From Patescibacteria group bacterium (GTDB taxonomy: Bacteria > Patescibacteriota > Patescibacteriia > Patescibacteriales > Patescibacteriaceae), in NCBI GenBank assembly GCA_028704945.1, contig JAQWEL010000006.1:1-64000 (forward strand): a stretch of 64,000 bases of DNA, given 5' to 3'. Numbering within the stretch: the first letter of the stretch is position 1; each line of letters starts with the position of its first letter. Positions 30,271-48,814 of this stretch are shown here, in pieces. A program made the position numbers and the translations under genes. The notes under the pieces were generated by a model, which did not search any database, was not told the DNA's origin, and saw nothing but the letters and a program-made list of their open reading frames with translations.

Positions 30271-30284
30271 CGGGAATAGGGATT
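30271..30284. repeat. 14-bp direct repeat of tRNA-Gln 3' region (candidate attachment-site copy)
   Basis: CGGGAATAGGGATT here is identical and in the same orientation to 48661-48674, which is the acceptor/T-stem 3' strand of tRNA-Gln. The copies are 18,390 bp apart and bracket the recombinase-bearing island. The identity is short, so this is a candidate att core rather than a proven one. Confidence 0.45.
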
Positions 30285-30421
30285 TATCGTGCTCGGCTAC
30301 GGCTTCGCCATAACGCCTTGCTTATCCAAGGCTTTCCCAAAGCCTTGTCCGACGCTCGTTGCGATAACTTGGCTCACCCGCCAAGCTATCTAACTCGCTT
30401 CCAACCTGTTCGAATCCCTAT
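30285..30421. repeat. GC-rich hairpin cluster between inverted tRNA-Gln pieces
   Basis: Hairpins CAAGGCTTT-CCC-AAAGCCTTG and CTTGGC-TCACCC-GCCAAG, a GGC-TTC-GCC turn and a TTATCG/CGATAA pair lie between CGGGAATAGGGATT (left) and GTTCGAATCCCTAT (30408-30421), which is the other strand of overlapping tRNA-Gln sequence. Clearly richer in G and C than its surroundings. Origin unknown. Confidence 0.6.
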
Positions 30422-32519: not shown

Positions 32520-35036
32520 CTATTTATTCGTAAAAAATTGGATTTCAAAAATTAATATATCATTTTCTTTATTTGAGCGCATATCTTCCACAATATTATA
32601 ATCTACAATGATATGCCCATCCACCATATCTATATATTTAAAATATTTTTCATCCTTCATTTTTTTTGCCAACTCCATAGAGAACCCCTCCTTTAACATC
32701 ATAATTAAAGTTTGATCATCTGTCCCATATTTTATTTTTTCATAAAAACTTTTATTCAGAAACCCTAAATCATTTAAAATTTCTACATATTTTACAATAA
32801 AATAATCAATATAATCTTGCTCTTCTTTTATACGAACAATCGCCAGATTGACTATTGCAGACTCAGTTTTCTCGTCTAAATCAACATAGTTATTTCTGAA
32901 ATCAGTATCATTCATTTTACAGTCACCCCAAGTAGACCCTACATAAATTTTTCTTTTTCCTGACTCTAGCTTATTCCAATATGAAACTATTTTTCCAATC
33001 ATCATTTTATAAGGGGCGCTATTCATTTTCCATGATAAAAACATAGCATAAAATCGCCTTGTTTTTTCATCACTTAAACGACTAATATTCTTTTCGCTGA
33101 ATTTCTTTTCTTTATTATAAAGTTCTTTTTGCCTTAAACTTACATTTTTAATAAAAATATCAAATATTACCGATAGCAACTCCTCGGGGTCATTAATGTT
33201 TATTCTCTCCTTATTATCATCATAGTTTTTATTAATAACGGATTCATTTTCATATATATCAAAGTCATAAACATTATTTTTAAAACACAACTTCGCTATT
33301 TCTGATTTTACTATTCTTACGTCTTTATCTGTAACGATTTCTGGTTCAATATTTATTAAGTATTCAAGAGATTCATTAAGATTTTGCTTTTCTAAATCAT
33401 TAAGTTCACTGGTGTTTTGTTTTATCAATGGATTTTCAATTTTATCTTTAATTATCTTGTTCTCTTTCACGGATTTTATTAAAAAATTTTCTGGATTGAA
33501 TTTTTTTGACGAATATCTACTTTTCAAAACGTAAACTTCTGGTTCTAACATATTAAGATTACCAGAAAAGTCATCAAAAACTTCACTAAATCTACAAACC
33601 CTACCAGTCAAATTTTTAAACTGAGAAGGATTTAAACTCTTTTTCCCTTTAGCGGATGACAATAAAAATATTTTTTCAGCAGGAATATTAACTCCCTGTA
33701 ATAAAGTTGAGGTGGTAACAATATATTTAACATTATTAATTCTTGAGAATATATCCTCAACATACATGCGAACATTTTCCGGCATGCTTCCATGATGATA
33801 AACCACTCCATTCTCAATTGTCTTAATTAAGTTATAATCCTTATGGAGAAAATCCTTTAAAGCCTCCTGGGCTTTTTTTATTTCTGTACCAACCTCGATT
33901 GGATTTTTGACAGACAAAGAAAATGATTCAATATCAATAGGCCTATTTAGGTAAACTATGTTTTTCGTCGCTCCGTGTTGATTAATAAAATCAAATTCCT
34001 TAACATCTGTCTGTTTCTCAGACTCAAAAGTCATATTAAGGAATTGATCATAAATACATAGTTTTCTATCCTTCGCCGTTAAATCAGAATAAAAATATTT
34101 TTCAACTTTTATAAACTCATTAATATTTTCGACAGCTAAGTTATCATCACTTGAAAATATTCTTATATTCTCCGGTTGAGATAAAAATGGAGTAAAATAG
34201 TAAAACTTTGTTAAGCTATTTCTATTCTTTAAAATATGCAAATCCTGCACGGCCAGGGTTTCCCTAGGGTCAATATCTATTATATTATGCGCCTCATCTA
34301 TCAAAACTACATCAAAAATTAATTTTGGATGCTTTTGCAATAGTCTAAGCAATCTTTCTTGAGTTAAGACAGCAATAAATCCGTTGACTGATTCGGAATA
34401 CATATCCGGATGAGTTATCACTCTGGACTTAGAGTTTCTAATTTTAACATTCTTTGTTAAATTTCTCTTTGTTTGCGCCAATAACGATTTTGTCGGCACA
34501 ATAATACATACATTTTTACCAATATTATCTTCAACCTTAGAAATAATGATTTCTGATTTTCCATAGGAGGTAGGAGCGACGATAATAAAATCTTCTTCTT
34601 TTTTAGAAAAAGTATCCAATCTTTTCTGCCCCTCAGAAAGATATATGGTTCTATCTCCTTTTTCTTTTTTAAAATAATCACAAGAAGCGGAAATAAATGA
34701 ATTATAAAAACTATCATTAAATAGATACTTGCTAAGATATTTTCCCTCAATGAATTTAGACACCGGGATGTAATTATAATTTATTGAAATATCATACAAA
34801 GGGATATAATTATTAGATAAGTTTGAATATCTTAAAATTATTTTATAACCCAATTTTCTTAGATGATAATCCTCTGTATTTGAAAAAATGACTGCAAATT
34901 TTAATAATAAAAAAAGATCGTCTTCTGACAAATCTTCATATTTATCAAGAAACAATCTTTTATAGGCAGCAAAAAAAATAGATTCATTTAATAATTTTTT
35001 ATTTTGTATATCTTTTAATTTTGCGGCCTTGTTCAT
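32520..35036 (-). CDS. hamB: HamB-like superfamily 2 helicase (Hachiman)
   Basis: 838 residues. Walker A/motif I is VAPTSYGKSEI (about 153-163), motif Ia-like VCIIVPTKSLLAQTKR, motif II LIDEAHN (DEAH, about 246-252), and motifs V and VI are STLLQGVNIPAEKIFLL and NLTGRVCRF (about 475-483), a Ski2/DEAD-like arrangement. The N-terminal about 120 residues and the C-terminal about 300 residues are helical and family-specific. It starts one base after the DUF1837-like gene, the gene order of Hachiman, in which HamB surveys DNA and restrains the HamA nuclease. Shorter family members exist, so length is not decisive. Confidence 0.8.
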   Translation of the reverse strand: MNKAAKLKDIQNKKLLNESIFFAAYKRLFLDKYEDLSEDDLFLLLKFAVIFSNTEDYHLRKLGYKIILRYSNLSNNYIPLYDISINYNYIPVSKFIEGKYLSKYLFNDSFYNSFISASCDYFKKEKGDRTIYLSEGQKRLDTFSKKEEDFIIVAPTSYGKSEIIISKVEDNIGKNVCIIVPTKSLLAQTKRNLTKNVKIRNSKSRVITHPDMYSESVNGFIAVLTQERLLRLLQKHPKLIFDVVLIDEAHNIIDIDPRETLAVQDLHILKNRNSLTKFYYFTPFLSQPENIRIFSSDDNLAVENINEFIKVEKYFYSDLTAKDRKLCIYDQFLNMTFESEKQTDVKEFDFINQHGATKNIVYLNRPIDIESFSLSVKNPIEVGTEIKKAQEALKDFLHKDYNLIKTIENGVVYHHGSMPENVRMYVEDIFSRINNVKYIVTTSTLLQGVNIPAEKIFLLSSAKGKKSLNPSQFKNLTGRVCRFSEVFDDFSGNLNMLEPEVYVLKSRYSSKKFNPENFLIKSVKENKIIKDKIENPLIKQNTSELNDLEKQNLNESLEYLINIEPEIVTDKDVRIVKSEIAKLCFKNNVYDFDIYENESVINKNYDDNKERININDPEELLSVIFDIFIKNVSLRQKELYNKEKKFSEKNISRLSDEKTRRFYAMFLSWKMNSAPYKMMIGKIVSYWNKLESGKRKIYVGSTWGDCKMNDTDFRNNYVDLDEKTESAIVNLAIVRIKEEQDYIDYFIVKYVEILNDLGFLNKSFYEKIKYGTDDQTLIMMLKEGFSMELAKKMKDEKYFKYIDMVDGHIIVDYNIVEDMRSNKENDILIFEIQFFTNK

Positions 35037-35037
35037 A

Positions 35038-35853
35038 TCAGCTATTAATCTCTTGCTCTAGAAAACTTTCTATTTTTTTGTATGTAGGCTTTTGTATCGA
35101 AAAAATAATAACGCCATCAAAAGCCTTATCCTTGATTTTCGCTTTATAGTCCCCTAACTTTACCGGACAAATTTTATTATCCAACGCCTTATATAAAACA
35201 GAGCTAAGAAGTACATTCTTGCTCTTATGCTTTATAACATCAGAATAATCGGATTTTAATAATTTTTTGATGTCCAATACTTTTTTTGAATCAAAGACGG
35301 TTGACTTTACATCGTCTAAAACTGAATCCCAAAAAACTTTTTCTGGTTTTTCAGAAATATGAGATAAAATTCCACTATTTTTTGATTTAGCTCTATTTAA
35401 TAAAATAATATTCTTCCGATTTGTTTCATCGTCATCCTTATCTCCGCCTGATTTTACCTCAGAATACCACAACCCCTTCTGTTCATTGTCATAATAAACA
35501 ACGTCAAAACCTTTTTTTACTCCAGACTCTTCTTTATTGTTCATGATAGAAATTGTTTGAAAATTGTTTATATACTTCGGAATTAATAAATGTGCGAGGA
35601 GTTCACCAATCATACCCTTTCTGGTATTTTCTTTTTTTTGTTTATATCTTCTTAAAAACTCTCTTAGTGTTTCTTTATAGCTATAATAATCACCCGGCTC
35701 AGATGCAACAACTTGACCATAACATATGCCACTGAGCATATTTCTTATTTCTGACATTAATTCAGGGCTAAAATCTTCTATATAACAAATATAAACACCA
35801 CTATCCTTGGAAGCTTTAAAGTCTATGCCTTTAATTTTAGTGCTGCTATTCAT
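35038..35853 (-). CDS. hamA: HamA-like DUF1837 nuclease (Hachiman)
   Basis: 271 residues from the ATG at 35851-35853 (MNSSTKIKGIDF). The frame is open further upstream but that part is a spurious hydrophobic run covering the promoter and operator. Elements fitting a DUF1837/PD-(D/E)xK nuclease are KGMIGELLAHLLIP (about 78-91), GFDVVYYDN (about 114-122) and LWYSEVKSGGD with the ExK pair (about 128-138). In Hachiman, HamA is the DNase effector released when HamB detects damaged or invading DNA. Assignment rests on these motifs plus the adjacent helicase. Confidence 0.75.
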   Translation of the reverse strand: MNSSTKIKGIDFKASKDSGVYICYIEDFSPELMSEIRNMLSGICYGQVVASEPGDYYSYKETLREFLRRYKQKKENTRKGMIGELLAHLLIPKYINNFQTISIMNNKEESGVKKGFDVVYYDNEQKGLWYSEVKSGGDKDDDETNRKNIILLNRAKSKNSGILSHISEKPEKVFWDSVLDDVKSTVFDSKKVLDIKKLLKSDYSDVIKHKSKNVLLSSVLYKALDNKICPVKLGDYKAKIKDKAFDGVIIFSIQKPTYKKIESFLEQEINS

Positions 35854-35901
35854 TTTAAAACTATATATTAACCATTTTAATGATGTAATTTTCCCATAAA
35901 A

Positions 35902-35931
35902 ATTGACAAAAGTCAATGAAATTAGTAATAA
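35902..35931 (+). promoter_or_regulatory. Divergent promoter region with palindromic operator
   Basis: TTGACA (35903-35908), 17 bases, TAATAA (35926-35931) makes a promoter for the plus-strand regulator gene. A perfect palindrome ATTGAC-AAAA-GTCAAT (35902-35917) covers the -35 box and also supplies a TTGAC on the minus strand facing hamA. A repressor bound here could control both directions. Confidence 0.55.
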
Positions 35932-35950
35932 TATAAACAAATATAAATAT

Positions 35951-36532
35951 ATGGAAACAATAAGCAAGGACCAGCACGAGGCCTTAAAAATATACAAGGA
36001 AATAAGTGAGTTACAGCGAGAAACCGTTAAAAAAATGAGAAAAGCGGGTTTTTATGATGACCTCGATAAAAGTATAGCCGAGCTTATTGCTAGCCATAAA
36101 GTATCACCAAGAACAGCTGAGATTCTAAAAAATTATCTTGTGCATCCAAGCCTAGACAAGGCTTTAGATCAAGTTGAGGCTATTTCTCTGTCTATGTTTG
36201 ATAAGATACTGGCCGGCAAAGGCATAGACGGGAAGATAAATCTACGTTTATATAAAAATGGCGTGCTTGGATATAACCCAATCGATAACCGCAGATACGT
36301 AATGAATAAAGAAAAGATGAGAATCGAAATATTGAAGGTATTAGCTAATGAGCAATTAAAAGCTCAAGAAATTTCAGACATACTCAACTCAACGCCTGGC
36401 TCCATAAGAAAAGCCATAGAATCAATTAACAAAAATTCTTCATTATTTTTAGAAATTGATGATAAGTTAATAGAGTCTGATAATAAGCTTGGATACTTTT
36501 TGAATGAAAAGTATTATTTGATATTAGATTAA
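35951..36532 (+). CDS. Probable winged-helix regulator divergent from hamAB
   Basis: 193 residues from ATG at 35951 (METISKDQHEALK); the frame extends 16 codons upstream but would overlap the promoter. The N-terminal half is helical. The C-terminal half contains a winged-helix-like HTH: KMRIEILKVLANEQLKAQEI, SDILNSTPGSIRKAIESI, then a beta wing (FLEIDDKLIESDNKLGYFL). Divergent placement 97 bases from hamA with a palindrome in between suggests it regulates the defence operon and itself. Family not recognised beyond the HTH. Confidence 0.65.
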   Translation: METISKDQHEALKIYKEISELQRETVKKMRKAGFYDDLDKSIAELIASHKVSPRTAEILKNYLVHPSLDKALDQVEAISLSMFDKILAGKGIDGKINLRLYKNGVLGYNPIDNRRYVMNKEKMRIEILKVLANEQLKAQEISDILNSTPGSIRKAIESINKNSSLFLEIDDKLIESDNKLGYFLNEKYYLILD

Positions 36533-39955: not shown

Positions 39956-40275
39956 AAAATAATAAGTTAATTATTAAATGGTTGGGTAATCCGTTAAAAA
40001 CAAAAACGGACACCCGACCTAGTTGCAAAACTACATTTTTGGTTTCCGCAAGGATTCCTACTCATGCTGGTCGGAGTGTCCGTTCCTGTGCACGAATAGG
40101 AAAATTAACCAAAAAATGGCTAAAATCCTTGCGTTTAATAAATGTAGTTTTGCACTTAAAATATAGCTTAAAAACACATAAAAGTAAAATAAAGTTGTCT
40201 ACAGCTTGTCTGTTTATCGGTCTAGACTTCCCTGTCGCTTTGCGTCATTAATTGCTTGTAATAACAAACAAACAT
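39956..40275. other. 320-bp region upstream of the serine recombinase
   Basis: No gene is supported. It contains two overlapping inverted-repeat pairs described at 40005-40153, and AT-rich sequence with no obvious consensus promoter. Confidence 0.6.
40005..40153. repeat. Nested, mutually exclusive inverted repeats upstream of the recombinase
   Basis: Pair 1: AACGGACACCCGACC (40005-40019) with GGTCGGAGTGTCCGTT (40069-40084). Pair 2: GCAAAACTACATTT plus CGCAAGGATT (within 40025-40056) with AATCCTTGCG plus AAATGTAGTTTTGC (within 40124-40153). The left arm of pair 2 lies in the loop of pair 1, so as RNA they form either a pseudoknot-like topology or two competing folds; as DNA they resemble the symmetric arms of recombinase sites. 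Confidence 0.75.
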
Positions 40276-41631
40276 ATGAATCAAGCAAGTACGACCCACG
40301 GCGCCCAAACGGTCGCCCTGGGGCAATCTAGGGGCAATTTAGAGGTATTACCGGTCGTAATGAGGTATTGCTTATACGCCCGTAAATCAACGGAGGAAGA
40401 TGAAAAACAAGCTCTTTCCATCGACTCTCAGATTAAAGAGATGCTAGAGATGGCAATGAGGGATAATATCCAAATAACTGAAATACGGAAAGAAAGCCAC
40501 TCAGCTAAAGATTCAGGCCAACGGCCTGTTTTTAATAAGCTAATATCGGATATCAAAAAAGATGTCTTTAACGGCATCTTATGCTGGGCCCCGGACAGGT
40601 TAAGCCGTAATGCCGGCGACCTTGGAGCGATAGTTGATTTAATGGATCAAGGAAAGATAATTGAAATTAGGACCCATGGCCAGAAATTTACCAATAGCCC
40701 AAATGAAAAATTCCTTCTAATGATATTAGGCTCTCAAGCCAAGCTTGAGAATGACCATAAAGGTGAGAATGTAAAACGAGGATTAAGGGCCAAATGCGAA
40801 CAAGGCTGGCGACCCGGCAGACCACCGCTTGGCTATCTACATGATAAATATGCTGAGAAAGGAGAAAGAAAAGTATATGTTGACCCCAAGCGAGCACCGA
40901 TAGTAAAGAAGATATTTGAGAAGATGGCGAACGAAGAATTAAGCTGCCGCAAAATCCACCAATGGCTAAATAGTGAAACCGATTTCAAAACTAGAAGCGG
41001 GAAACTCATGCCGCTTAGTCTTGTCCAAAGGATAATTAAGGAACCATATTATTATGGCGAGTTTGAATATCCAACCGGAAGCGATAAATGGTATAAGGGC
41101 GGATATGAGCCAATAATATCAAAGGAGCTTTATACAAAGGCTAATGAAAGGTTAACCAGGAATAATATCTCCAGACAGGATTGTAAAGAATTCGCCTTTA
41201 CTAAACTTATTAAATGCGGACATTGCGGTTCAGGTATAACTGCTGAAGAAAAATTTAAAAAACTGGTCGACGGATCAGTTAAAAGATATGTCTATTATGG
41301 ATGTGCTAGGTCCAGAAATACAAAATGTAATCATGGCTTATTAAGAGAAGAAGAAATGATTGAACAATTAGTCGGGCTAATGGACAAAATTGATATCAAC
41401 GAGATAGGGATAAAGAACAAATTTGAGGATGAGGTAAATAGATTTTATAAATTCAGCAAAGGAATACTTGGAGTGACCGGTAGCGATTTCGAAAAACAAA
41501 AGAACCTAGATATTAGAAACTACGCTAAATACGTGCTTAAAGAAGGATCTATTCTTGAAAAACGAGAAGTGCTTGGGTGCTTGGAAAGTAAGTTGGTTAT
41601 GAGAGATAAACAAATTACTCTAATAAACTAG
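40276..41631 (+). CDS. Large serine recombinase / integrase
   Basis: 451 residues from the ATG at 40276; a TTG at 40252 and an ATG at 40360 (MRYCLYARKS) are alternatives, and the fold proper begins at 40360. The resolvase domain shows YARKST with the nucleophilic Ser, LCWAPDRLSRNAGDLGAIVD and KFLLMILGSQAKLEND. A Recombinase domain follows (GWRPGRPPLGYLHDKYAEKG ... YYYGEFEYP), then a zinc ribbon (IKCGHCGSGITAEE with YYGCARSRNTKCNHG) and a helical C-terminus. Such enzymes integrate and excise phages or islands at short att sites. It is the only recombinase in the island. Confidence 0.95.
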   Translation: MNQASTTHGAQTVALGQSRGNLEVLPVVMRYCLYARKSTEEDEKQALSIDSQIKEMLEMAMRDNIQITEIRKESHSAKDSGQRPVFNKLISDIKKDVFNGILCWAPDRLSRNAGDLGAIVDLMDQGKIIEIRTHGQKFTNSPNEKFLLMILGSQAKLENDHKGENVKRGLRAKCEQGWRPGRPPLGYLHDKYAEKGERKVYVDPKRAPIVKKIFEKMANEELSCRKIHQWLNSETDFKTRSGKLMPLSLVQRIIKEPYYYGEFEYPTGSDKWYKGGYEPIISKELYTKANERLTRNNISRQDCKEFAFTKLIKCGHCGSGITAEEKFKKLVDGSVKRYVYYGCARSRNTKCNHGLLREEEMIEQLVGLMDKIDINEIGIKNKFEDEVNRFYKFSKGILGVTGSDFEKQKNLDIRNYAKYVLKEGSILEKREVLGCLESKLVMRDKQITLIN

Positions 41632-41653
41632 GGCTTTAAAAACTCCTATTTTT

Positions 41654-43504
41654 ATGGTACATTCATATAGTATAGAAATAGCCAAAATGAATAAAATATA
41701 TAACTTATACAATTCAATACCGACAGGATCCTTAGATAAAAAGTTAGTTGACAATCTTCTAACTTTTTTGTCAAACAAACCAAAGACAGATGATACTCTG
41801 CTTGATTTTTTATATAAAAATTTAAAAAATGACCCTATTAATTTATTACATCTAATTGGGGTCATTAATCAAAAAAGCAAAGAAAAAGAAAAAATAGCAA
41901 ATACGGACAAGCGAAAACACTTTGGGATATATTACACGGATTACGCAATCGCCAGACGCTTAGCTAAAGAATCTATTTGTAATATACAAAATAAAGATTT
42001 AGAAAATCTTACTTTTTTTGAACCATGCGCTGGCGTTGGCATCTTTATTATTGCGTATATCGACGAAATTACTGAAAGATTAAAAAACATCAATACCGGA
42101 ATACTTCAAAAAATTATTAATAATATTTATTATTCTGATATAGATGGCGACGCCATAGATATAATAAATAAATTTTTGCCTTTATACTTAAATCATAAGT
42201 ATTCAGCAAAAATTAAAATAAGCCAAAAAAATTATTATAAGGGAGATGTTTTGTTCAAAATCTGCAAAACAGATATTCAAAAGAATAACCTTTTTAAAAT
42301 ATTTAATGAGGATAAAAAGTTTGATGTAATTTTAACAAATCCTCCATATAAATTATTAAAGGCGAATGCTAATAAGTATAAAGACGGAGATAAAAATAAT
42401 TATTTAGACGAAGTTACTCTCTTATTGAAATTCATCAGAGAAAATAAGGTTTATCAGTATAACGAAGGGACTCTAAATTTATATAAAATATTTTTAGAAG
42501 AAATACTTGAACAGTATTCCACGGCAAAAGCGACCATTGGGGTACTAATACCAATAACACTCCTAAACGATCAACAAAGCGAATTGCTAAGAAAAAGAAT
42601 ATTAAATAATTACAAAATAAATAAAATCTACACCATCTCGGAAAAAAATGATTTTTTTCCAGATATTTCTCAAGCTTTTAGTTTTTTCGTTATAGACAAG
42701 GCCAACAAAACAGATCTTATAGAAATAGTTGATGAAATTAATAATTATAAGCAACTCGATAAACAGGGATATAAAATCAGTCATGAAACTATAACAAACA
42801 TCTCAAACTCTAGTCCAATAATTATAGAAAGTGAAATCGGTATAAATATTCTTAAAAAAATAAGTAAAAATAAAAAAATTAGAGAATTTAAAAATATTTT
42901 AAATCTCAGAGGAGAACTAGATTTAACATTTTATAAATCTTCAATCACAGAACAAAAAACTGAACTCCCTCTTATAAAGGGCTCTAATATAAAAGAATTC
43001 AATATTCAAGAAACGAATCTATTTGTAAAAAATGATTTTGTAAAAAAAATAGGACCAAAAAGTAGTCACATAAATAATAAAAGAATTGTTTGCCAACAAA
43101 TTTCAAATATCCATTCTAAAAAAAGGCTAAAGTTTGCCTTAATAGACAAGAATTTTGTATTAGGAAACTCGTGTAACTATATTGCAATAACAAATGACTT
43201 GTTTAAAACGGAAGAAAGCTTATCACTTAAATATTTATTAGGGGTTTTAAACTCTAATCTGATGGATTGGCGATTTAAATTAACAAACTCAAATAATCAT
43301 GTAAGTAATTATGAGATATCCGAATTACCAATTGTTCTACCGAACGAGAAACAAAGGAAAGAGATAGAGGATATTGTAAATAAAATTTTGTTAAAAAAGA
43401 CTAGTAATACAAACACTTTAATCAATAATTTAAATGATTTAATTTTTAATCTTTATAATATTAGTAAAGAAGAAAAGCTTTATATTACCAAACAATATTT
43501 ATGA
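41654..43504 (+). CDS. Adenine N6-methyltransferase of Alw26I/Eco31I/Esp3I-type system
   Basis: 616 residues. The gamma-type arrangement has the SAM motif FFEPCAGVGIFIIAYIDEI (about 121-139) followed by the catalytic IILTNPPYKLLK region (NPPY at about 229). A C-terminal target-recognition region contains SCNYIAITNDL and SNLMDWRFKLTNSNNHVSNY, as in type IIG/IIS N6-methylases. A second Met at 41687 is an alternative start. It overlaps the permuted cytosine methylase by 4 bases (ATGA). The convergent endonuclease identifies the system type; the exact target sequence is unknown. Confidence 0.88.
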   Translation: MVHSYSIEIAKMNKIYNLYNSIPTGSLDKKLVDNLLTFLSNKPKTDDTLLDFLYKNLKNDPINLLHLIGVINQKSKEKEKIANTDKRKHFGIYYTDYAIARRLAKESICNIQNKDLENLTFFEPCAGVGIFIIAYIDEITERLKNINTGILQKIINNIYYSDIDGDAIDIINKFLPLYLNHKYSAKIKISQKNYYKGDVLFKICKTDIQKNNLFKIFNEDKKFDVILTNPPYKLLKANANKYKDGDKNNYLDEVTLLLKFIRENKVYQYNEGTLNLYKIFLEEILEQYSTAKATIGVLIPITLLNDQQSELLRKRILNNYKINKIYTISEKNDFFPDISQAFSFFVIDKANKTDLIEIVDEINNYKQLDKQGYKISHETITNISNSSPIIIESEIGINILKKISKNKKIREFKNILNLRGELDLTFYKSSITEQKTELPLIKGSNIKEFNIQETNLFVKNDFVKKIGPKSSHINNKRIVCQQISNIHSKKRLKFALIDKNFVLGNSCNYIAITNDLFKTEESLSLKYLLGVLNSNLMDWRFKLTNSNNHVSNYEISELPIVLPNEKQRKEIEDIVNKILLKKTSNTNTLINNLNDLIFNLYNISKEEKLYITKQYL

Positions 43505-44625
43505 TATATAATCACGTAACATATCCACTTAGCGAAAACGACATGAAAATGGTTGTATCCATCCCTGCTGGTGGAAACTGGAAAAATATTCCAAAATCAA
43601 TACCATCAAAAAGGCTAGAGCAAATTAGATTGAGTGGTGGGCGGACAACTCTTTACGGAAGATTAGAGTGGGGTAAACCTAGTTACACTATAACCACATA
43701 TTTTAACAGACCGGGTAATGGGGCTTACATACATCCAAAAGAAAATCGTGTCATAAGCGCACGAGAAGCGGCGAGATTGCAATCTTTTCCTGATAATTAT
43801 ATATTTGAGGGATCCAACACATCTTTTTGTAAACAAATTGGGAATGCCGTCCCCCCATTATTGGCCTACTCAATTGCCAAACAAATAAAAAAAGAAACAA
43901 AAACTAAAAATGTGCTTGATTTATTTTGCGGATCAGGTGGTTTAAGTAAAGGGTTTGAGTTAGCTGGTTACAATATAGTAGCGGCTAATGATAATTTTAA
44001 TGCGGCTTGCCAAACTTATAAGAAAAATCATAAAAATACAATATTTATTGAAGGTGACATAACTAAAAAAGAAATAAAGGACGATTTATTCAAAGCAATA
44101 AAAAATAAAAAAATTGATATCGTAGTAGGCGGACCACCTTGCCAGGGTTTTTCTTATGCCGGAAAAAGAATTGTTGAAGACCCTAGAAATTTTTTATACA
44201 AGGAATTCGTTGAAATAGTTAAAAAAATACAACCCAAGGTGGTTGTAGTAGAAAACGTTGAAGGCATAATAACAAGTAATGGTGGAAAAACTTACGAAAG
44301 CATCAAGGAAAACTTTTCTGATTTAGGATATAAATTTTTTGGTAAAAAAATGCATGCTGTTAAGTTCGGTGTTCCCCAAAAAAGAAAAAGGGTTGTAATG
44401 ATTGGCGTAAAAAATGGCAATCCCGAGAAATGTTTTCCCGAAGAAATTATAACGGAAGAGTCAAATTATGTTACTGTAAAAGATGCTATTGGTAATCTTC
44501 CTAACGTAAAGATAAGCAATAGAGAGAATCTTATCAACTTAACTCCAAAGCCAGAGTGTGAATATCAAAAATTTTTATCTGGCAAAATTACAGCCGACGA
44601 ATTAATAAATAAAATCAAAAAATAA
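43501..44625 (+). CDS. Circularly permuted DNA cytosine-5 methyltransferase
   Basis: 374 residues. Motifs normally at the C-terminus come first: a target-recognition-like part with GRTTLYGRLEWGKPSYTIT, motif IX-like REAARLQSFPDNY (about 93-105) and motif X CKQIGNAVPPLLAYSIAKQI (about 119-138). Then follow motif I VLDLFCGSGGLSKGFE (about 138-154), motif IV GGPPCQGFS (catalytic Cys, about 215), motif VI VVENVEG and motif VIII KFGVPQKRKRVVMIG. This order is a circular permutation of the canonical enzyme. It would methylate one strand of an asymmetric site, complementing the adenine methylase. Confidence 0.92.
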   Translation: MIYNHVTYPLSENDMKMVVSIPAGGNWKNIPKSIPSKRLEQIRLSGGRTTLYGRLEWGKPSYTITTYFNRPGNGAYIHPKENRVISAREAARLQSFPDNYIFEGSNTSFCKQIGNAVPPLLAYSIAKQIKKETKTKNVLDLFCGSGGLSKGFELAGYNIVAANDNFNAACQTYKKNHKNTIFIEGDITKKEIKDDLFKAIKNKKIDIVVGGPPCQGFSYAGKRIVEDPRNFLYKEFVEIVKKIQPKVVVVENVEGIITSNGGKTYESIKENFSDLGYKFFGKKMHAVKFGVPQKRKRVVMIGVKNGNPEKCFPEEIITEESNYVTVKDAIGNLPNVKISNRENLINLTPKPECEYQKFLSGKITADELINKIKK

Positions 44626-45999
44626 CTACCAACTATTAGCCGCTTGGTCAGCAAGTATTTTAAAAATCTGTTGCAGGTTTTTAAACGCTTGCTGATTTTT
44701 ATTACCCTTAAGTTGAGCCAACAACTTCTCTATTTCTTTATTAATAATAGCGTTATTTAATTCTTTTGTCTTCCGGTTACTAATACTCCTATATTGATCC
44801 AATTCATCAAAAGCTATTCTTAAATATCTTCCAACATTATTCTGCTGATTTTTTCCAGTGCGCTCAATAGCTTTTACTTCTTTATATGTTCCATCTTTTG
44901 GGTTAAACCCTATAAATTTATAATCATAAAAAGAATACTCTGGATGCAATAAACGTTTTAAGAAACTCTCATATCCATTATCTTTAATGATAGAAAATAT
45001 AGTTAAAATATGATGCAAATTTGCCCTCATCAAAGAACTCAATTTTACAGCATCTTTATCGTTTTTCACCCCACCTTTTAAATTATCCCAAATGAACCTA
45101 GAATGCCAAGAAATAACTTTATCTCCTTCAAGTTCATCATTTATTAAAATTTTTACATCGTTAAAACTCATCCTATTATTTTTTGTAGAGTTTTGTTCTC
45201 TGGTCATTGGTTGAAATTTAGGACGATGGCAGAAACCTAGAGATATTGGACCAATGTGATCAGCACTCAAACCATAGTTACTAAATTCTGACATCAACCT
45301 ATCTGCCATCTTCCAATTACCGTCAGCCCAATTTTCATAGACTCTCCTATCCTGACCATACCTAGATAAATTATCTTTATGCCTCCCTTTGTCGGAAACG
45401 CCCCTGCAACAATTACCATCAGAATGGAATCCGTCAAATCTATCAGGAGAATTACTCATGACACCCGGGGATAAAAATGCTTTTACATTTTTTTGTGTAA
45501 ACTCTTGATATATATAATCATTAAGCTCTTTCTTAGTCTTAATAGATGGGCCACTTATTTTAAAAATTGTTAAGAATTTATTCAAATTTATTAGGTTTTT
45601 GGCAAGATCATTAACTATATCAAAGATTGTTTTATCGTATGGAGTATACTCAATACCAAATTCTTTCTTGATATTATTAATCAATCTTTTGTTTGGATAT
45701 ACATATTCTATAATCAATGATTTTCCACAAATCTGACAAACATGTTTTTTTGTCGGATGAATTGCTAATGCGATTTTGGCATAACACCCCGGTTCTATTT
45801 TTATTTTATTTTCACGGCACCTCGCATTCCACCAGACTCTTCTCTTTAAGCCGTTATCAGATTTTCCAGTGACAACCCATTTAACATTACCATCTGCGGA
45901 ATACTCAAAAAATAACCCCTTATAATTTGGGTGCTTAACAATAAAATCTGTATATTTTTTAAAATTAGGATGCCAAATACGAGAGGCTTCTTCTGGCAT
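44626..45999 (-). CDS. Alw26I/Eco31I/Esp3I-family type IIS restriction endonuclease
   Basis: 457 residues. A zinc knuckle (CQICGK, about residue 92) and the block GVMSNSPDRFDGFHSDGNCC, RGVSDKGRHKDNLSRYGQDR and RVYENWADGNW are features I associate with this family. ADHIGPISLGFCHRPKF followed by NSTKNNRMSF (about 243-275) is its HNH-type catalytic segment. Family members cleave outside short asymmetric sites containing GTCTC; whether this one shares that site is unknown. The stop abuts the methylase stop (44623-44628, convergent), and the gene has its own promoter, as is usual for endonucleases expressed after methylation. Confidence 0.88.
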   Translation of the reverse strand: MPEEASRIWHPNFKKYTDFIVKHPNYKGLFFEYSADGNVKWVVTGKSDNGLKRRVWWNARCRENKIKIEPGCYAKIALAIHPTKKHVCQICGKSLIIEYVYPNKRLINNIKKEFGIEYTPYDKTIFDIVNDLAKNLINLNKFLTIFKISGPSIKTKKELNDYIYQEFTQKNVKAFLSPGVMSNSPDRFDGFHSDGNCCRGVSDKGRHKDNLSRYGQDRRVYENWADGNWKMADRLMSEFSNYGLSADHIGPISLGFCHRPKFQPMTREQNSTKNNRMSFNDVKILINDELEGDKVISWHSRFIWDNLKGGVKNDKDAVKLSSLMRANLHHILTIFSIIKDNGYESFLKRLLHPEYSFYDYKFIGFNPKDGTYKEVKAIERTGKNQQNNVGRYLRIAFDELDQYRSISNRKTKELNNAIINKEIEKLLAQLKGNKNQQAFKNLQQIFKILADQAANSW

Positions 46000-46117: not shown

Positions 46118-47701
46118 CTAGCGATATTTACCAATTTTTAAGCCTACTTTTTTATCAATTTCTTCAAGCATTATATTGTATCGTTTTGACAATTGTTTTC
46201 TTATAGAATCACTGCCTAATATCTTCAAACTTATATCAATAGACCGATAAGCATACGAAATAAAACTTCTCCGTCCTCTATAAATATATTTCTTTATTAA
46301 CAATTTTGTAAATATTTTTCTATCATCTTTGCTTTTTGATCTCTTTCCATAGGCCATATTAACTGACTTGCCTATTTTTGATTTCATTTTTCTATAGTAT
46401 TTTGATAAGCTACTAGACCTTAAAAATGCATTTTGTCCGTCATATTCAAACCCCAAATATTGCATGCTTTTATAAAAAAGATTTTCTGTCTTTTTATCCA
46501 CTGATTTTAAATATATTTCTTTAAACCCTCTAATCAAGCCACTATTATTTTTAATAAATAATGTTATATCGGTTTTATTTGGATTGATTTTTAACTCATA
46601 CTTTTTTATGCTTTCACAAACAAATTCAATAGCCTCTTTGTATTTATCAATGCCACAAATAACGACTAAATCATCGCTATATCTTCTATAAATCCCGCCG
46701 ATCTTATTAACATAATCACTAATTTCTTTATCAAACTCTAACATGTATATATTGGCCAAAGTAGCGCTAATCGGCGCTCCTTGCATTATGCCACACGTTT
46801 GACCCATTCTTTTACTATCTTTTAAATTATTTTTATTATGATTACCCTGAATAAAACCATTATCTACTATTAGACTCAAAAATTCCTTTTTATCTTCACA
46901 AATCTTTTCAATCTTCTTCCCATTTTTAAAAGGAGCCTTAAAAATTTTGATATCATGTTTATCTGTTTTATCTACTATTTTTTTAAATTTAATCCCAGCT
47001 TTTTTAAAAACATTCTTAGCGTCAACAAATTTAAATTTTGTCAGGTTGTTATATACTGAATAATGATCGTTTGGTAATTTCTGAGAGTCTGTTTGGCCAA
47101 TAACTTGGCACCATTCTTTTTTTAAAATTTCGTGATCTAAACTATCAAAAAATTTAGTAATGTCGGAAACGATAGCAACACACTCCTCCTTCTGACGAAT
47201 AAAACCAAAAACTTCAAAAGCAAAATCTATGCTTGATTTATTTTTTTTATCGCCATTAGTTACAGGAATCTTCCTGTAGGCTGTCACACAATCATTTATC
47301 CCAAGTAATTTTAATTTATCTTCATAAAAACTATTAAGGAGAAACGAATACCAAGAATATATAAGGGCGTCATAATGAGATGCATAATATACCTCTCTTT
47401 TCTTTATTTCTTTTCTTCTATCTCTATTCTTAAATTTTCCGACAGCATCTTCTTTGACATTTTTTATTCTCGGAGTATCAATAGTCATCTTTAAAAATGG
47501 CCAATACCCATGTCTTGCAACCTTATCTTGGTTTAAAAATTCATTTTTTAAACTAAAAAGAGAAGACTTCGGTCTTCTCAGGTCAAAATGTAAATACGTT
47601 CTTTTAGCTCCCGCCTCTTCTTTCCTATTAACTTTTTTTCGAGAAAGTTTTACTCCCTCAGCTTTTACCCATTTATCAAATAAATCTTCAATAAGAGCCA
47701 T
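46118..47701 (-). CDS. UG/DRT-like reverse transcriptase, probable antiphage system
   Basis: 527 residues. RT signatures: IVSDITKFFDSLDHEIL (motif A, about 178-194), GIMQGAPISATLANIYM (motif B, about 305-321), YRRYSDDLVVIC (motif C with YSDD, about 336-347) and ELKINPNKTDI (motif D). The N-terminal block REVYYASHYDALIYSWYSFL ... VTAYRKIP is typical, as I recall, of the unknown-group/Abi-like RTs including DRT enzymes. QG rather than the DGR-type LPxGNxxS in motif B, and no maturase or HNH domain, argue against a diversity-generating or group II intron enzyme. Subtype is not determinable by eye. A structured upstream region may be its ncRNA. Confidence 0.85.
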   Translation of the reverse strand: MALIEDLFDKWVKAEGVKLSRKKVNRKEEAGAKRTYLHFDLRRPKSSLFSLKNEFLNQDKVARHGYWPFLKMTIDTPRIKNVKEDAVGKFKNRDRRKEIKKREVYYASHYDALIYSWYSFLLNSFYEDKLKLLGINDCVTAYRKIPVTNGDKKNKSSIDFAFEVFGFIRQKEECVAIVSDITKFFDSLDHEILKKEWCQVIGQTDSQKLPNDHYSVYNNLTKFKFVDAKNVFKKAGIKFKKIVDKTDKHDIKIFKAPFKNGKKIEKICEDKKEFLSLIVDNGFIQGNHNKNNLKDSKRMGQTCGIMQGAPISATLANIYMLEFDKEISDYVNKIGGIYRRYSDDLVVICGIDKYKEAIEFVCESIKKYELKINPNKTDITLFIKNNSGLIRGFKEIYLKSVDKKTENLFYKSMQYLGFEYDGQNAFLRSSSLSKYYRKMKSKIGKSVNMAYGKRSKSKDDRKIFTKLLIKKYIYRGRRSFISYAYRSIDISLKILGSDSIRKQLSKRYNIMLEEIDKKVGLKIGKYR

Positions 47702-47724
47702 ATATAAATTTGCTATAAATCAGT

Positions 47725-47844
47725 GGAAGAGTTTAGGCAAGGTAATCCTATAAATAACTCTTCCGCGCGGATGTGATTAGGCCAAACACAACATCAGAGA
47801 TTTCAACTACTGGAATAGGGCTTCCTCTGATAAGCTGACGCCCT
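47725..47844 (-). ncRNA. Candidate structured RNA associated with the reverse transcriptase
   Basis: Read on the minus strand towards the RT gene. AGGGC (47840-47844) pairs with GCCCT (47817-47821), and ATCAGAG (47825-47831) with CTCTGAT (47793-47799): the two stems interlock as an H-type pseudoknot. Then GGAAGAGTT (47756-47764) pairs with AACTCTTCC (47725-47733) around a 22-base loop ending 24 bases before the RT start. Several DRT families carry a template ncRNA in this position. Ends and transcription are unknown; part of the region is also an open frame (47748-47858). Confidence 0.5.
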
Positions 47845-47858
47845 CTAAGCCAATTCAA
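47748..47858 (-). other. 36-codon open frame overlapping the candidate RNA
   Basis: From a TTG at 47858 the frame reads LNWLRGRQLIRGSPIPVV then EISDVVFGLITSARKSYL and stops at TAG (47748-47750). It has no ATG and no ribosome site, but its composition is protein-like for such AT-rich surroundings. It may be chance, a leader peptide, or relevant if the RNA is copied into coding cDNA as described for DRT2. Confidence 0.25.
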
Positions 47859-47926
47859 GTACCTAGTAAATTAAATGATATAATTTATATGTTCGTTAAT
47901 TTAATCTATTTAATTATTTGCTTGTT

Positions 47927-47975
47927 GCCGCGAAGCGGCGCGAAGCGCACGCTGAGCGGTAAAGCTCAGGTGTGC
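47927..47975 (-). other. GC-rich triple hairpin cluster upstream of the RT RNA
   Basis: GCCGC-GAA-GCGGC (47927-47939), GCGC-GAA-GCGC (47938-47948) and an imperfect stem GCACGCTGAGC...GCTCAGGTGTGC (47947-47975) follow each other with almost no spacer in very AT-rich DNA. They may belong to the RT-associated RNA, be a terminator-like structure, or be another of the GC-rich inserts seen near tRNA relics. Confidence 0.6.
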
Positions 47976-48118
47976 TGCGAAATAGTCCGTTTTATAGGGC
48001 TATTGACAGGCATTAAATAAATCCCGAAAAAAGCTTAAATTTCTTAATTTAACAATTTTCGTATCAAATGGCCTAATTTGATCAATTTAATAATAATATA
48101 AAAACTAATTTTAGTCAA

Positions 48119-48160: not shown

Positions 48161-48403
48161 TTAACCTTTAGAGCTTTTTGGGTCTTCGCTTTTTGGATAA
48201 GTTCTTTCTTCCTGAAACTTCCCGTCAGCCTTCTGAATCTTAACAGATCCGCCTTCTTTCCCTACCGCCTTTTTTAATGCACCAGCAGTAGTTGCAGCAT
48301 CTTTGGTTTCAAAAGATTTAACAACTTTATCGGTTTTATCATTAGTCAGATCCCACTTACCCTTTTTCTCATTATAATCTAAGGTAAATTTTGATAACGC
48401 CAT
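48161..48403 (-). CDS. DUF2188-like small protein
   Basis: 80 residues. The pattern FTLDYNEKKGKWDLTNDKTD, then VVKSFETKDAATTAGALKKA, then EGGSVKIQKADGKFQEERTY matches the two strand-helix-strand layout of DUF2188 proteins (a W-rich strand, a helix of 'A...A', and a strand with I.K.DG.IQ.E.TY). Small, soluble and highly charged; the role of the family is unknown. Independent gene with its own terminator, immediately inside the right edge of the island. Confidence 0.78.
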   Translation of the reverse strand: MALSKFTLDYNEKKGKWDLTNDKTDKVVKSFETKDAATTAGALKKAVGKEGGSVKIQKADGKFQEERTYPKSEDPKSSKG

Positions 48404-48655: not shown

Positions 48656-48729
48656 TGGCTCGGGAATAGGGATTCGAACCCCAATAAACAGGACCAGAAC
48701 CTGTTGTCCTACCATTAGACGATTCCCGA
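48656..48729 (-). tRNA. tRNA-Gln (anticodon CTG)
   Basis: Minus strand 74 nt including encoded CCA (48656-48658) and discriminator G. Acceptor TCGGGAA/TTCCCGA pairs perfectly; the D arm contains TAATGGTA; the anticodon stem ACAGG/CCTGT holds loop TTCTGGT, giving anticodon CTG; the T arm is TGGGG-TTCGAAT-CCCTA with the invariant TTCGAAT. This is the right-hand anchor of the accessory island, and its 5' half is partially duplicated just upstream at 48743-48811. Confidence 0.97.
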
Positions 48730-48742
48730 ATAAATAATTTTA

Positions 48743-48811
48743 AACCTGTTGCCCCCGTCTCTTCGGCGGGTCGCCGATGAGGCGACTACCATTAGACGAT
48801 TCCCGAATAAA
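48743..48811 (-). pseudogene. Truncated tRNA-Gln copy with a 34-nt hairpin insertion
   Basis: A 26-base block (48786-48811) repeats the tRNA 5' half (48709-48734) exactly, including the bases before it. The tRNA then continues with a 2-base step to CAACAGGTT; here 34 GC-rich bases (48752-48785) replace that step and only CAACAGGTT follows before similarity ends. The insert folds as TCGCC-TCATC-GGCGA and a CCCG/CGGG hairpin. There is no T arm or 3' acceptor, so it cannot be a functional tRNA. Confidence 0.75.
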
Positions 48812-48814
48812 GGC

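What the first reader, a model, noticed from the sequence alone, without database searches (positions are those of the whole stretch)
46118..47975. UG/DRT-like reverse transcriptase with an upstream pseudoknot-forming region in a Patescibacteria-like genome
Seen directly: an intact RT (FFDSL, QGAPIS, YSDD) without maturase or HNH domains, preceded by non-coding DNA that can form an H-type pseudoknot (AGGGC/GCCCT interlocked with ATCAGAG/CTCTGAT) plus a 9-bp hairpin 24 bases before the start codon. Established: several DRT systems (for example DRT2 and DRT9) use a dedicated upstream ncRNA as template in antiphage defence. Inference: this locus is a two-component defence RT with its own template RNA, in a lineage where such systems are little studied.
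Basis: partly seen in the sequence, partly recalled or inferred. Interest (0 to 1): 0.88.

Follow-up and report, generated by a model that had tools for sequence, protein, structure and literature searches.

The report
Phage-defence enzyme that builds a gene
A very small bacterium of the little-studied Patescibacteria type carries a DRT2 phage-defence system, whose reverse transcriptase is predicted to copy part of a neighbouring RNA over and over until the copies form a promoter and an endless growth-stopping gene; the way the copies join here, and in other distant DRT2 branches, differs from the one studied case and was not worked out in the papers I could read.

Summary
It is a DRT2 (UG2): PADLOC Drt2 433 bits against 71 for the next family; the predicted fold matches KpDRT2 9c0i at E=6e-37. 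Two details change.

The template lies upstream, at 48018-47872: 147 nt, bracketed by ATTTA/ATTTA instead of KpDRT2's ACA/ACA. Joined head to tail, its antisense strand forms a perfect TTGACA-17-TATAAT promoter across the junction and a stop-free 49-codon neo frame. None of 829 control windows and none of 2000 shuffles does this.

The same search recovers the published layout in KpDRT2 relatives, and finds Bacteroidota-type junction promoters in Bacteroidota DRT2s (15/50 loci against 1/47 others). Tang et al. 2024 found Neo hard to annotate in divergent DRT2 clades; this offers an answer. Everything here is sequence prediction; no biochemistry was done. Neighbours are an Alw26I-type restriction system, Hachiman and a serine recombinase near tRNA-Gln.

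The parts
46118..47701 (-). DRT2 reverse transcriptase, 527 aa
   Evidence: PADLOC Drt2 433 bits; NCBIfam Drt2 388.6 bits, cut-off 390; fold match to 9c0i at 5.9e-37; D180, D343, D344 invariant in 51 DRT2s
48090..48118 (-). Candidate promoter of the ncRNA, TTGACT-17-TATTAT
   Evidence: 10 of 12 consensus matches; not better than chance for the region on its own
47702..48085 (-). Predicted DRT2 ncRNA (ends approximate)
   Evidence: Fold z=-4.2; contains handle, template and scaffold below
48025..48061 (-). 5' handle hairpin CGAAAA...TTTTCG, interrupted helix, 6 nt before the template
   Evidence: MFE fold; handle-to-motif gap is 6-8 nt in 31 of 46 DRT2 loci, null 12%
47872..48018 (-). Predicted template, 147 nt; the antisense (+) strand carries the neo frame
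48014..48018 (-). First jump motif ATTTA (position of ACA-1)
47867..47871 (-). Second jump motif ATTTA (position of ACA-2)
48003..48008 (+). TTGACA, -35 of the neo promoter formed only across the repeat junction
47879..47884 (+). TATAAT, -10 of the neo promoter formed only across the repeat junction
47889..48018 (+). neo frame from ATG to the end of the template; it continues after the jump at 47872
   Evidence: Only open frame of six; 49 codons per repeat
47860..47864 (-). AGGTA, proposed pseudoknot strand 1
   Evidence: By position, as in KpDRT2-type RNAs; for the window alone p=0.29
47740..47744 (-). TACCT in the tower loop, proposed pseudoknot strand 2
47725..47764 (-).
47793..47844 (-).
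   Evidence: Present; found in 10.7% of shuffles
44626..45999 (-). Neighbour: Alw26I/Eco31I-type restriction endonuclease

Best explanation
This is a DRT2 antiphage system. Step 1 (inferred, as in KpDRT2): an ncRNA of about 380 nt is made from the minus strand ahead of the RT, which binds its 5' handle and its 3' scaffold (tower and pseudoknot). Step 2: the RT copies 48018-47872 (147 nt); at the end of each pass the nascent 3' end, templated by the first ATTTA, re-pairs with the second ATTTA, so copies are joined head to tail without shifting the reading frame. Step 3: after second-strand synthesis each junction brings TTGACA and TATAAT together at 17-bp spacing, a promoter that does not exist in the genome. 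Step 4: transcription in the antisense direction gives an mRNA with a stop-free 49-codon hydrophobic repeat (Neo), whose translation stops growth of the infected cell. Shown here by sequence: family membership, RNA layout, repeated motifs, junction promoter and open frame. Inferred from KpDRT2: phage triggering, template jumping, second strand, translation, toxicity.
For: RT. Junction promoter 12/12 with open frame and 5-nt motif: 0 of 829 control windows, 0 of 2000 shuffles. The same script ranks the published ACA layout first in KpDRT2 relatives. Only one of six frames open, GRAVY 0.94; 1.7% of open shuffles as hydrophobic. Handle 6 nt before the motif, as in 31 of 46 loci at 6-8 nt. Full RNA fold z=-4.2. 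Other divergent DRT2s give perfect host-type junction promoters.
Against: A 7-nt repeat (ATTTAAT) is present at both ends and would give a 142-nt, frame-breaking repeat with 12-bp promoter spacing if the RT used it. The jump motif is not ACA. The KpDRT2-type covariance model does not find the scaffold. The proposed pseudoknot is not significant in the window alone. The ATG lies only 4 nt after the -10, so translation would have to start in a later repeat or at another codon. Neo of the other Patescibacteria loci is only moderately (L003, L130) or not (L102, L131) supported.
Confidence: 0.8

Rival explanations
1. A DRT2-family RT with an upstream template RNA, but the product is not a neo gene: the repeated cDNA itself, or cDNA joined at another junction, is the effector.
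For: The jump motif is not ACA, a longer competing repeat exists, and Tang et al. suggested alternative mechanisms in divergent clades.
Against: Perfect junction promoter, open frame and hydrophobic product together, absent from 829 controls and 2000 shuffles.
Confidence: 0.12
2. One reading: the template RNA is 47702-47865 itself, with the H-type pseudoknot as its key structure.
For: The helices exist.
Against: By comparison with KpDRT2-type loci that stretch is the 3' scaffold; the pseudoknot occurs in 10.7% of shuffles; the segment is no more stable than shuffles.
Confidence: 0.03
3. A decayed or silent DRT2 locus.
For: QGAPIS preceded by GIM instead of the usual GIP; long insertions relative to KpDRT2.
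Against: Intact frame, invariant catalytic aspartates, confident fold, intact template with open frame.
Confidence: 0.04
4. A group II intron, retron or DGR reverse transcriptase.
For: Weak shared RT-core scores.
Against: Drt2 scores 433 bits against 71 or less for the rest; fold match 9c0i at 6e-37 against 2.9e-9 or weaker for group II-type RTs; no maturase or HNH domain.
Confidence: 0.01

Closest known systems
KpDRT2 (Klebsiella pneumoniae DRT2; PDB 9c0i; PMC12039810, PMC11100668, PMC12596737)
   Same: RT family and fold; ncRNA just upstream with 5' handle, template, 3' tower; repeated motif at the template ends; antisense promoter TTGACA-17-TATAAT formed across the junction; stop-free hydrophobic frame of a multiple of three.
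   Different: About 35% RT identity and roughly 100 extra residues; ATTTA instead of ACA; 147-nt instead of 120-nt repeat; scaffold not found by a KpDRT2-type covariance model; start codon 4 nt after the -10 rather than after a ribosome-binding site.
Divergent DRT2s of Bacteroidota (L034, L085, L050, L090 and others)
   Same: Same RT family; same layout; non-ACA jump motifs; junction promoter and open frame.
   Different: Junction promoter of Bacteroidota type (TTTG-19/20-TAnnTTTG) instead of sigma-70 type.
DRT9 (PMC12483538)
   Same: Defence RT plus upstream ncRNA.
   Different: Far weaker fold match (1.7e-11); makes a protein-primed homopolymer, no neo frame.

Membership tests
DRT2 (UG2) | RT most similar to DRT2 proteins | tested here: met
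   NCBIfam equivalog score 388.6, just under the 390 cut-off
DRT2 (UG2) | Catalytic aspartates (xxDD and D of motif A) | tested here: met
   D180, D343, D344 invariant in 51 sequences
DRT2 (UG2) | Upstream ncRNA with 5' handle, 3' tower and pseudoknot | tested here: inconclusive
   All parts present by position; covariance model misses it; pseudoknot p=0.29
DRT2 (UG2) | Template whose antisense concatemer forms a junction promoter and an endless frame (neo) | tested here: met
   By sequence only:
DRT2 (UG2) | Phage-triggered concatemeric cDNA, toxic Neo, antiphage defence | not testable with these tools
   Needs experiments
KpDRT2-type subclade | ACA-1 and ACA-2 bracketing the template | tested here: not met
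   ATTTA in their place; the window lies outside the KpDRT2 clade
Group II intron, retron or DGR RT | Best similarity to those classes, or maturase/HNH domain | tested here: not met

The most novel reading that the evidence does not exclude
Neo gene assembly is the general DRT2 mechanism, not a KpDRT2 speciality. The jump site is set by structure (6-8 nt after the 5' handle, just before the pseudoknot), the jump motif is free to vary (ACA, ATTTA, AGTTAT, TATTTC, ATACC and others), and the junction promoter is rewritten to suit the host's RNA polymerase when the system moves between phyla, Patescibacteria included.
Probability: 0.6. Interest if true: 0.72.

Novelty: new variant of a known kind. 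Interest (0 to 1): 0.62.

Why it matters
Tang et al. left open whether divergent DRT2s make Neo in the same way. A simple rule (repeat at the structural jump site, frame-keeping length, host-type promoter across the junction) predicts the hidden gene in the window and in many Bacteroidota loci, and gives exact junctions to test. It also places a gene-writing, probably growth-stopping defence in a 1-Mb Patescibacteria-type genome, where defence is little studied, and suggests how such a system is re-tuned to a new host's transcription machinery.

Tried and rejected
Single-protein scans of genome and viral collections found no close relative; only an alignment query worked. No Rfam family matches the locus. 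A covariance model of the KpDRT2-type scaffold, made without the window, failed on the window and on other distant loci, so scaffold homology rests on layout, not on a model score. A family-wide single-locus test of the post-template pseudoknot was weak (mean longest helix 4.7 bp observed, 4.2 shuffled), partly because the tower was misfound in many Bacteroidota loci; only the KpDRT2-type alignment gives clear covariation. For L102 and L131 no confident junction was found, and for L003 and L130 it is only moderate. A jump through the longer ATTTAAT repeat was judged less likely because it breaks the frame and gives 12-bp promoter spacing.

Full report
WHAT IS THERE. The RT frame (46118-47701, minus) is intact and carries FFDSL, QGAPIS and YSDD. 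RVT_1 is its only Pfam domain. PADLOC puts it in Drt2 with 433 bits; the next family, RT_UG17, scores 71. NCBIfam Drt2 gives 388.6 bits, just under its 390 cut-off. Solved KpDRT2 chains match at 1e-54. A model from 51 DRT2s (mean pLDDT 91) hits KpDRT2 9c0i at 6e-37 with target TM 0.88; DRT9 follows at 1.7e-11 and group II-type RTs at 3e-9. In a tree of 98 DRT2s plus outgroups the window groups, with modest support, with two Patescibacteria-type loci (L003, a genome of the same order, and L102 from Moraniibacteriota) and some Bacteroidota, apart from the KpDRT2 clade and a large Bacteroidota clade. DRT2 is rare among the window's relatives: 2 of 111 genomes of its order, 4 of 381 of its class, its own included.

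THE KNOWN MECHANISM. In KpDRT2 the RT copies a 120-nt template between two ACA trinucleotides, jumps back, and builds concatemers; a -35 and a -10 that lie in the wrong order in the genome meet across the junction, and the antisense strand encodes an endless frame, neo (PMC12039810, PMC11100668). The pseudoknot pairs bases just after the template with a distant 3' segment, G155-C159 with G250-C254 (PMC12596737). Tang et al. could predict ncRNAs in divergent clades but found Neo annotation more challenging there and raised the possibility of alternative mechanisms.

THE TEMPLATE IN THE WINDOW. I enumerated all pairs of short repeats upstream of the RT whose spacing is a multiple of three and whose antisense concatemer has an open frame, and scored a TTGACA-N-TATAAT promoter across the junction. 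In KpDRT2 relatives L113, L115 and L117 the ACA layout described for KpDRT2 comes first with 12/12. In the window one candidate also scores 12/12: ATTTA at 48018-48014 and 47871-47867, 147 nt, 17-bp spacing. None of 829 other 480-nt stretches of the window reaches 12 (8 reach 11), and none of 2000 dinucleotide shuffles. One of six frames is open; it reads MFVNLIYLIICLLPRSGAKRTLSGKAQVCCEIVRFIGLLTGIKLNDIIY, GRAVY 0.94. Among shuffles of the template 8% have an open frame and 1.7% of those are as hydrophobic. Hydrophobic bias is reported for Neo. The -35 half with its flank, TTGACAGGCATTAAAT, occurs once in the genome, here.

THE SCAFFOLD. Its 9-bp hairpin fits the 'tower'. AGGTA (47864-47860), 2 nt after the second ATTTA, can pair with TACCT in the tower loop, the position of the KpDRT2 pseudoknot. 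In 23 KpDRT2-type relatives this helix is 100% paired, with changes on both sides in 4 of 5 pairs (GCGGC/GCCGC, GTGGC/GCCAC, GCGAC/GTCGC, GCAGC/GCTGC, GCGGT/ACCGC). The window's row is gapped there, so it contributes nothing to that count. For the window alone the helix is not significant (p=0.29) and the covariance model does not reach it. The 179-nt segment is no more stable than shuffles (z=-0.16); the full 384-nt RNA is (z=-4.2).

FAMILY-WIDE RESULT. The same search gives perfect sigma-70 junction promoters in 14 of 47 non-Bacteroidota loci and 0 of 50 Bacteroidota loci. A Bacteroidota-type junction promoter (TTTG-19/20-TAnnTTTG, 10/10; consensus from my own knowledge) occurs in 15 of 50 Bacteroidota and 1 of 47 others. 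In the large Bacteroidota clade, with motifs of 5 nt or more, 11 of 42 loci score 10/10 against 0 of 1142 flanking control stretches. Related loci are not independent, so these counts overstate the number of separate events. Motifs vary: ATACC, TATTTC, CAATTTC, AGTTAT, TTGTTT, AGTATTA. Although the search ignores structure, the motif lies 6-8 nt after a hairpin in 31 of 46 loci, null 12%. In the window the automatic test picked the inner helix (gap 16); counting the outer CGAAAA/TTTTCG helix seen in the predicted fold, the gap is 6 nt.

CONTEXT. The RT is flanked by an Alw26I/Eco31I-type restriction enzyme and two methyltransferases, a large serine recombinase, Hachiman (HamA, HamB) and a DUF2188 gene, next to tRNA-Gln. 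In a same-genus genome the same tRNA-Gln is followed at once by a different serine recombinase and another methyltransferase, so this looks like an integration hotspot. The lineage fits Patescibacteria (small genome, no L30), but no tool named it.

LIMITS. All mechanism beyond sequence is inferred from KpDRT2. The start codon of the first repeat, the RNA ends, the primer and the phage trigger are unknown. A competing 7-nt repeat could give a different junction. The promoter spacing was part of the search, so spacing and score are not independent evidence; the controls were searched in the same way. The literature search covered open-access PubMed Central papers only and no supplements, so earlier reports of Neo in divergent clades may exist.

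Noticed in passing
32520-35997 (-): A Hachiman pair: HamB-like helicase (PADLOC 4e-75) and a diverged HamA (Pfam HamA 1.7e-9).
   Followed up: partly
40252-45999: Large serine recombinase (CcrB/XisF-like), two Alw26I/Eco31I-type methyltransferases and the matching endonuclease: a mobile restriction-modification cassette beside the DRT2.
   Followed up: partly
48656-48812; 30271-30284; 30408-30421: tRNA-Gln with partial copies: a 27-nt copy of its 5' part at 48786-48812, a 14-nt direct copy of its 3' part at 30271, and an inverted 14-nt copy at 30408; possible attachment-site remnants.
   Followed up: partly
L136:12447-14197: In the same-genus genome G001 the same tRNA-Gln is overlapped by the 3' end of a different large serine recombinase with other methyltransferase cargo nearby: an integration hotspot.
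   Followed up: partly
48161-48403 (-): DUF2188 protein, a PADLOC candidate defence family (PDC-S16, 4.7e-8), directly upstream of the ncRNA.
   Followed up: no
L132 (relative G086, contig C38): The nearest Patescibacteria-type DRT2 lies beside what look like type III restriction-modification genes (my reading of the frames; not scanned against family models).
   Followed up: no
L034, L085, L050, L090 and other Bacteroidota loci, upstream of the RT: Junction promoters of Bacteroidota type and non-ACA jump motifs, suggesting that the neo promoter follows the host.
   Followed up: yes
own genome G000:C11:33004-33297 (L002): A second RT fragment with in-frame stops, probably a pseudogene.
   Followed up: no
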